Shown in pieces: positions 11,960 through 55,557 of a stretch of DNA of 64,000 nt. The notes below the pieces were generated by a model that had not been told where the DNA came from, did not search any database, and saw only the letters and a program-made list of their open reading frames with translations. Where the stretch lies: assembly GCF_003353065.1 (NCBI RefSeq), contig NZ_CP027806.1:1087001-1151000 (forward strand), written 5' to 3'. The position numbers were made by a program, and so were the translations under genes. Source of the stretch: Cyclonatronum proteinivorum (GTDB lineage Bacteria > Bacteroidota > Rhodothermia > Balneolales > Cyclonatronaceae). Each line of letters begins with the position of its first letter. Within the stretch, counting starts at the first letter, position 1.

Positions 11960-12017
11960 GCAATTCGGGAATGCGTTTCTGCCCGTCGCGGCCTTTGCGC
12001 CTTCGTGCACCACTCCC

Positions 12018-12104
12018 AAAAAGCAAGGGACCTATGCCGATTTGGGATTTGCGCGAACCACGAAAGACCGTGATGTTCACGGAGTTTCCCCCAAAAAATA
12101 AAAA
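12018..12104 (+). repeat. Dispersed 84-89 bp intergenic repeat, copy A
   Basis: The repeat begins AAAAAGCAAGGGACCTATG, has a central GATTTGGGA, and ends GTGATGTTCACGGAGTTTCC followed by CCCAAAAAATAAAA. Ends and total length are conserved in the other five copies while most of the middle varies. It lies between porU and the thiolase terminator. Confidence 0.85.
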
Positions 12105-12163
12105 GCCTTACTTCAACCCCTGCAGCCTGTGGTTGAGCTGCCATGTTTTAACCTGAAAAAAGC

Positions 12164-15512: not shown

Positions 15513-15600
15513 AAAAAGCAAGGGATTTCCCGCAGGTTTGGGGTGACATGACATGGCATTGACCCCCTGATGTTCACGGAGTTTACCCCAAAAAATAAAA
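15513..15600 (+). repeat. Dispersed 84-89 bp intergenic repeat, copy B
   Basis: It begins AAAAAGCAAGGGATTTCC and ends CTGATGTTCACGGAGTTTAC followed by CCCAAAAAATAAAA. It matches copy A at both ends, with an unrelated middle of almost the same length. Confidence 0.85.
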
Positions 15601-15663
15601 GGCTATAACATGGCTGCAAAGCCGGGCTCAGGGGGAGGGGTTTGCAGAAAGGTCCGCGTAAAA

Positions 15664-24772: not shown

Positions 24773-24861
24773 TTTTTTATTTGGGGGAAACACCGAGAAC
24801 ATCACGGTCTTTCGTGGCAGCTCAGCGCTCCCAAATCATAATTTGAGTCCCTTGCTTTTTT
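24773..24861 (-). repeat. Dispersed 84-89 bp intergenic repeat, copy C (inverted)
   Basis: On the minus strand it begins AAAAAAGCAAGGGACTC, contains GATTTGGGA, shares CCACGAAAGACCGTGATGTT with copy A and ends GTGTTTCCCCCAAATAAAA. It is the copy closest to copy A. Confidence 0.85.
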
Positions 24862-33779: not shown

Positions 33780-33867
33780 ACTTTATGCCAAACCCGAAGC
33801 TGCCCCTGGCAGTACCATGGCCCGGCTCCGAGCCCTGCAACCGGCCTGACGGGCTTTCGGGCCTGTG

Positions 33868-33951
33868 TTTTTTTGGGGAAAATCCCGTGAACATCAGGGG
33901 CGCCGTGGCAGATTGTGAGCTCCCCAGTCAAAGATAGGTCCCTTGCTTTTT
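33868..33951 (-). repeat. Dispersed 84-89 bp intergenic repeat, copy D (inverted)
   Basis: On the minus strand it begins AAAAAGCAAGGGACCTATC and ends CCTGATGTTCACGGGATTTTC followed by CCCAAAAAAA. Middle sequence unlike A except for a shared CCACG. Confidence 0.85.
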
Positions 33952-33970
33952 GATTCTCGTATCCGATGAT

Positions 33971-37446: not shown

Positions 37447-37530
37447 AAAAAGCACGGGATATTCCGTTGATTTGGGATTTCTCACCAGCACGGCTGTCAG
37501 TGATGTGCAAGGGGTTTTCCCCAAAAAATT
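37447..37530 (+). repeat. Dispersed 84-89 bp intergenic repeat, copy E
   Basis: It begins AAAAAGCACGGGATATTCC, has GATTTGGGATTT in the same central place as copy A, and ends AGTGATGTGCAAGGGGTTTTC followed by CCCAAAAAA. It is the most diverged copy. Confidence 0.75.
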
Positions 37531-55470: not shown

Positions 55471-55557
55471 AAAAAGCAAGGCGCCCTGAGACCGATTTGG
55501 TATGCCCTGAACCAGCTTTGCACCCCTGATCCTCACGGAGTTTCCCCCAAAAAAAAC
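55471..55557 (+). repeat. Dispersed 84-89 bp intergenic repeat, copy F
   Basis: It begins AAAAAGCAAGGCGCCCTG, contains CGATTTGG, and ends CCTGATCCTCACGGAGTTTC followed by CCCCAAAAAAAA. It sits in the convergent spacer between the Mur ligase and permease genes and ends 6 bp before the permease stop. Confidence 0.85.

What the first reader, a model, noticed from the sequence alone, without database searches (positions are those of the whole stretch)
12018..12104. Six copies of an 84-89 bp intergenic repeat with conserved ends and a free middle
Copies at 12018-12104, 15513-15600, 24773-24861 (inverted), 33868-33951 (inverted), 37447-37530 and 55471-55557 share AAAAAGCAAGGG at one end, TGATGTTCACGGAGTTTC-CCCCAAAAAA at the other, a central GATTTGGGA and nearly constant length. 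The rest of the middle differs. One per 10 kb, only between genes, and fixed length with conserved ends suggests a protein-bound or RNA-level element rather than decayed junk.
Basis: seen in the sequence. Interest (0 to 1): 0.7.

Follow-up and report, generated by a model that had tools for sequence, protein, structure and literature searches.

The report
Oriented extragenic repeat, IS110 landing pad
The genome of the soda-lake bacterium Cyclonatronum proteinivorum carries about 260 copies of a short, previously undescribed DNA element that sits just past gene ends, spreads within its lineage, keeps the same few sequence blocks in every copy, and is the exact landing site of a probably RNA-guided jumping gene.

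Summary
The six window copies belong to a family of about 260 in a 4,294,247-bp genome whose length equals that published for Cyclonatronum proteinivorum strain Omega. It also occurs in one same-genus MAG, and in none of 242 other genomes of the class. The element is longer than described: a further block (GCCGGGYTCAGG) lies about 30-45 nt beyond CCCC. Of 123 copies, none lies in a gene. The CCCCAAAAAA end faces a gene's 3' end in 89/123 (p=7e-7), and orientation also follows replication (p=0.002). Copies are species-specific and show no positional orthology, so the family moves. Even in the closest copy pairs the blocks change 8 times more slowly than the rest, so it is not decaying junk. No RNA structure or covariation was found. 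All seven copies of a 1.4-kb IS110-family element sit inside the repeat at one position, matching a predicted bridge-RNA guide. Best explanation: a non-autonomous, trans-mobilised extragenic element recognised through its blocks by an unidentified factor; RT, Y1 and this IS110 enzyme are unlikely movers. It is a new variant within the known class of extragenic repeats and does not meet the definition of REP.

The parts
12016..12130 (+). repeat copy 1 (core 12018-12104; model match runs on to 12130)
   Evidence: sequence; model match 73.2 bits
15512..15634 (+). repeat copy 2 (core 15513-15600; distal block GCCGGGCTCAGG at 15621-15632)
   Evidence: sequence; model match 77.4 bits
24761..24862 (-). 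repeat copy 3 (core 24773-24861)
   Evidence: sequence; model match 80.5 bits; the G005 copy in the same spacer is not its closest relative
33833..33952 (-). repeat copy 4 (core 33868-33951; distal block GCCGGTTGCAGG at 33845-33834)
   Evidence: sequence; model match 75.8 bits
37446..37556 (+). repeat copy 5 (core 37447-37530; GCACGG...TGCAAGG subfamily; left distal block GGAGCGCC just upstream)
   Evidence: sequence; model match 65.4 bits
55470..55565 (+). repeat copy 6 (core 55471-55557; GAGACCGATTTGG subfamily, the kind in which most IS110 insertions lie)
   Evidence: sequence; model match 54.4 bits
46812..46878 (-). weak partial match to the repeat model, probably chance
   Evidence: 14.7 bits, E=0.003

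Best explanation
The repeat is a non-autonomous, lineage-specific mobile extragenic element with a core of about 87 bp (about 130 bp with its distal block). It has no coding capacity and no stable fold. I infer that an unidentified trans-acting factor encoded in C. proteinivorum and its carrier relative recognises the conserved blocks (AAAAAGCAAGG, GRTTTGGGR, TGATGnnCnnGGnGTTTnCCCCAAAAAA, GCCGGGYTCAGG) in DNA and copies the element into spacers just beyond gene 3' ends, in an orientation set by both transcription and replication. Shown here: copy number, block conservation, extragenic location, orientation biases, species-specific amplification, absence of positional orthology, absence of RNA structure. 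Inferred: movement in trans, recognition by a protein. Unknown: the factor. Separately, an IS110-family element uses the repeat as a landing pad through a predicted bridge RNA; the insertion pattern is shown, the guiding step is inferred from guide-target complementarity.
For: About 259 copies with 0 in the reversed control. 0/123 in genes, 3'-end orientation 89/123 (p=7e-7), tandem spacers 37:15 (p=0.003). Orientation relative to replication 113/184 (p=0.002), 61/88 among the most conserved copies, although gene strands show no such bias (403:392). Nearest neighbour in the same species 95% and 88% against 72% and 28% expected; copies at orthologous spacers no more similar than random inter-species pairs; 14 of 20 placed G000 copies have no copy in the matching G005 spacer. 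Close copy pairs share the core but not the flanks. Blocks evolve 8 times more slowly than the middle even in the closest pairs. Copies sharing a spacer face away from each other: 5 of 6 such pairs in G000 and four further close pairs in G005 (list).
Against: No mobilising gene was found. Y1_Tnp and this IS110 are absent from G005, and RT is absent from both carriers. No clean empty site or target duplication could be defined, because spacers of the two species do not align. Decayed copies are scarcer than a purely selfish family would leave. The strong constraint on blocks of resident copies could also mean a cellular function.
Confidence: 0.55

Rival explanations
1. The repeat is a chromosome-wide binding-site family for a host DNA-binding protein (nucleoid, replication or segregation protein). 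The cell needs many oriented sites but not particular positions, and the element has been domesticated.
For: Purifying pattern on blocks in resident copies; orientation relative to replication; block starts spaced by roughly 2, 3 and 2 helical turns; spread over the whole chromosome; extragenic only.
Against: Absent from four other same-genus genomes and from 238 others of the class, so not a general need. A multi-block element must be spread by copying, so mobility is still required. The replication bias is modest (61%).
Confidence: 0.25
2. It is an RNA element: a small RNA or 3'-UTR element transcribed on the gene-sense strand (reverse complement of the listed orientation), ending in the T-tract CCCTTGCTTTTT.
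For: Gene-sense orientation bias; T-tracts at both ends on the gene-sense strand.
Against: No consensus pairs, no covariation, no folding excess; no Rfam match; ordinary terminators lie between stop and element at least as often as at other genes (30-39% against 22%).
Confidence: 0.08
3. It is a transcription terminator module of the adjacent gene.
For: Located mostly 40-150 nt past stop codons, T-tracts on the gene-sense strand; a few copies abut a strong hairpin.
Against: A hairpin at the T-tract is hardly more common than in shuffles (39% against 35% at threshold 6); a separate intrinsic terminator often precedes the element; the conserved blocks are not what a terminator needs.
Confidence: 0.05
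4. It is a REP element of the RAYT (Y1 transposase) class.
For: Extragenic, more than 100 copies, 3'-end bias, IS110 insertion target; Y1_Tnp genes in G000; orientation relative to replication would suit single-strand transposition.
Against: No stable palindrome; the second carrier genome has no Y1_Tnp match; the Y1 genes of G000 lie among other repeats.
Confidence: 0.07

Closest known systems
REP / BIME extragenic palindromes with RAYT transposases (PMC2817692)
   Same: more than 100 extragenic copies; inverted neighbouring pairs; lineage-specific families; target of specific insertion sequences
   Different: no stable hairpin; about 87-130 bp with several sequence blocks at fixed spacing; a defined orientation relative to gene 3' ends; no Y1 transposase shared by the two carrier genomes
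IS110-family elements inserting into REPs (IS621, ISPpu9, ISPpu10, ISPa11; PMC1525189, PMC11208160)
   Same: one insertion position in a genome-wide extragenic repeat, CT core at both junctions, non-coding end with target-like and donor-like guide segments in two hairpin loops
   Different: the target repeat is a new, non-palindromic family in Balneolota; the guide sequences differ
MITEs and other non-autonomous transposable elements
   Same: short, non-coding, multi-copy, subfamily bursts, moved in trans by inference
   Different: no terminal inverted repeats and no target-site duplication could be shown; blocks stay conserved in resident copies instead of decaying

Membership tests
REP element | extragenic location, high copy number | tested here: met
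   0/123 in genes, about 259 copies
REP element | palindrome forming a stable hairpin | tested here: not met
   mean folding z -0.72 forward and -0.50 reverse; consensus fold of the 88-copy alignment has no pairs
REP element | associated Y1 (RAYT) transposase | tested here: not met
   Y1_Tnp in G000 but none in G005, the other carrier; G000 Y1 genes lie among other repeats. G005 is a MAG, so absence is not final
MITE | terminal inverted repeats and target-site duplication | tested here: inconclusive
   ends AAAAAGC / CCCCAAAAAA are not inverted repeats; spacers do not align between species, so no empty site
MITE | related autonomous element with the same ends | tested here: inconclusive
   in the 28% of G000 held, split copies contain only the IS110 element, inserted within the repeat; no larger element with the same ends was seen
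structured non-coding RNA (Rfam) | covariance-model match or covarying pairs | tested here: not met
intrinsic terminator | GC hairpin directly before a T-run | tested here: not met
   barely above shuffled control
IS110 family (the inserted element) | DEDD_Tnp_IS110 plus Transposase_20 domains | tested here: met
   PF01548 E=3e-26 and PF02371 E=1.3e-18
IS110 family (the inserted element) | single target position with shared core dinucleotide and guide complementarity | tested here: met
   six copies with both junctions plus both ends of a seventh, rearranged copy, all at A|GTGATGCTC in the repeat; CT at both junctions in transposase sense; GAGCATCAC and GCCAG in one hairpin loop, CAGTACC further on
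IS110 family (the inserted element) | bridge RNA expressed and functional | not testable with these tools
   sequence and fold only

The most novel reading that the evidence does not exclude
A mobile extragenic element that is neither palindromic nor structured is spread by an unknown trans-acting machine that reads several spaced DNA blocks and inserts behind gene ends with an orientation set by replication and transcription: a dispersal mechanism distinct from RAYT/REP and from ordinary MITEs.
Probability: 0.3. Interest if true: 0.65.

Novelty: new variant of a known kind. Interest (0 to 1): 0.5.

Why it matters
Extragenic repeats are common, but their movers and uses are mostly known only for REP/RAYT. 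Here two species of one genus carry the same family at different places, so movement, target choice and constraint can be read directly, and the mover can be sought by comparing gene content. The family also comes with a natural, probably RNA-guided recombinase whose target and guide can be read from sequence, a ready test case for bridge-RNA targeting outside the studied bacteria.

Tried and rejected
Structured RNA: consensus folding and mutual information (no pairs), folding against dinucleotide shuffles, Rfam at two thresholds. Terminator hypothesis: hairpin-before-T-run test against shuffles, and terminators between stop and element. Reverse transcriptase as mover: no RVT_1 in either carrier genome. 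Y1/RAYT as mover: none in G005, and the G000 genes are among other repeats. This IS110 as mover: absent from G005. Defining ends and target duplication from empty sites in both directions: spacers do not align. Genes between neighbouring copies as candidate mover: the two spacers read hold an oxidoreductase-like and an esterase-like gene, judged by eye. Viral contigs, phages and plasmids: no match. Literature: the genome paper does not use the word repeat; searches for extragenic repeats in this group returned nothing relevant.

Full report
OBSERVATION. The six copies exist at the stated places and strands. The window lies in a single 4,294,247-bp contig, the length published for the complete genome of Cyclonatronum proteinivorum strain Omega (PMC6243061), a haloalkaliphilic member of Balneolaeota from soda lakes. 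A pattern holding only the two ends finds 88 copies in that genome and none when read backwards. The right-hand block alone finds 259 in G000 and 70 in G005, none reversed. In 1.21 Mb of G000 that I held, a profile model finds 141 hits, 133 of them full length.

ANATOMY. Written in the orientation of the finding, the element is: AAAAAGCAAGG, about 13 nt, GRTTTGGGR, about 22 nt, TGATGnnCnnGGnGTTTnCCCCAAAAAA, about 22 nt, GCCGGGYTCAGG. It is found at a fixed distance to the right of elements in the same orientation (18 sites, 17 of them 21-25 nt past the model end) and hardly in other spacers (4 sites). About half the copies keep at least part of it. A left-hand block GGAGCGCC about 16 nt before the A-tract is present in a subset, more often in G005. 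Between the blocks the sequence falls into recurring local variants such as ATCTTTGAT, ATCTTAGGT, CAAATTATGAT and GAGACCGAT. Linkage between columns is local and not of base-pairing type.

CONSTRAINT. Columns conserved in G005 were used to define blocks, and differences were then counted in the closest non-overlapping pairs of G000 copies. For the 18 closest pairs blocks differ at 0.016 per site and the middle at 0.127 (p=3e-15); the pattern holds for looser pairs. Simple decay of dead insertions would hit both alike. Blocks are therefore kept either because resident copies are used, or because only copies that keep them continue to spread.

LOCATION AND ORIENTATION. Using a codon-usage gene caller written for this purpose, 0 of 123 copies lie in genes although 73.5% of the sequence is coding. 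The right end faces the 3' end of the neighbouring gene in 89 of 123 (p=7e-7); tandem spacers give 37 against 15 (p=0.003); convergent spacers are over-represented. The median distance to that stop codon is about 76-104 nt. Intrinsic terminators lie between stop and element in 30-39% against 22% for other genes, so the element sits beyond gene ends and does not replace the terminator. When two copies share a spacer they face away from each other: 5 of 6 such pairs in G000, with four further close pairs of the same kind in G005 (list). Taking origin and terminus from GC skew, the listed strand is the leading-strand sense in 113 of 184 copies (p=0.002) and 61 of 88 of the best-conserved ones, while genes show no such bias (403 to 392).

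SPREAD. The model finds the family only in G000 and G005, with no convincing match in four other same-genus genomes and none in 238 others of the class. Genes of the two carriers are roughly 75-85% identical over the stretches compared. Of 20 G000 copies whose spacer could be placed in G005, 14 have no copy there; four of the six that do rest on G005 loci fetched because they hold a copy, so retention is overstated. Copies in the same spacer are not more alike than random inter-species pairs, and nearest neighbours are almost always within a species. Closely related copies share the core but not the flanks. The family has therefore multiplied separately in each lineage.

NO RNA ROLE FOUND. Folding against dinucleotide shuffles gives mean z of -0.3 to -0.7 for both strands; the alignment has no consensus pairs; Rfam gives nothing above its thresholds.

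THE IS110 ELEMENT. Two copies of the repeat looked split. They hold a 1,423-bp element at the same position; the transposase open frame is about 370 aa with DEDD_Tnp_IS110 and Transposase_20 domains. G000 has six near-identical copies and a seventh split into two parts, and G005 has none. The six copies with both junctions, and both ends of the seventh, all join the repeat at A|GTGATGCTC. In transposase sense both junctions carry the dinucleotide CT. The 281-nt non-coding end folds into a stem CAAGTCTGG/CCAGACTTG whose loop holds GAGCATCAC (the left target) and GCCAG (complementary to CTGGC, the usual right target), and CAGTACC, matching the donor end, lies further on. The sequence AGTGATGCTC is in 2 of 129 unoccupied copies but at all seven occupied ones (the chance value printed there treats copies as independent). 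The layout matches the published IS621 bridge-RNA rules (PMC11208160), and specific insertion of such elements into REP repeats is known (PMC1525189). This is a well-supported prediction, not a demonstration.

MECHANISM. The data fit a non-autonomous element moved in trans. Reverse transcription is unlikely (no RVT_1 in either carrier). Y1 single-strand transposition would suit the replication bias, but G005 has no Y1 match, with the caution that it is a draft. The mover is unknown. The main rival is a domesticated array of protein-binding sites; both may be true in part.

LIMITS. Gene calls and the terminator finder are simple scripts of mine. The whole genome was not available as a file, so context statistics rest on 1.21 Mb of G000, enriched for regions around the 88 best copies. 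Block and middle columns were defined on copies found by similarity, which favours conserved blocks somewhat. Origin and terminus are read from GC skew. No experiment was possible.

Noticed in passing
G000:C1:58274-59696 and the other places in loci L206-L213: IS110-family insertion sequence, all insertions inside the repeat at one position, with a legible predicted bridge RNA.
   Followed up: yes
window 24893, 25135 (-), 34122 (-): A second extragenic repeat, AACCCGCATTATTCAC, with 54 sites (up to 1 mismatch) in 1.21 Mb; it sometimes lies in the same spacers as the repeat studied here.
   Followed up: partly
G000:C1 around 2323755, 1606277, 1880331, 1712318, 3143233: Five Y1_Tnp (IS200/RAYT-like) genes; those read lie among other short repeats, for example CCCGAAGGGATG-type and GGGGCGTAGCCC-type, perhaps their own REP families.
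   Followed up: partly
G000:C1:826982-827321: Two copies of the repeat inside a direct duplication of about 222 bp.
   Followed up: no
G000:C1:608618, 2639691, 3610060: Three copies of a second, distantly related (29% identity) IS110-type transposase; targets not examined.
   Followed up: no
spacers of G000 and G005: Spacers between orthologous genes are essentially unalignable although the genes are roughly 75-85% identical, pointing to fast spacer turnover.
   Followed up: partly
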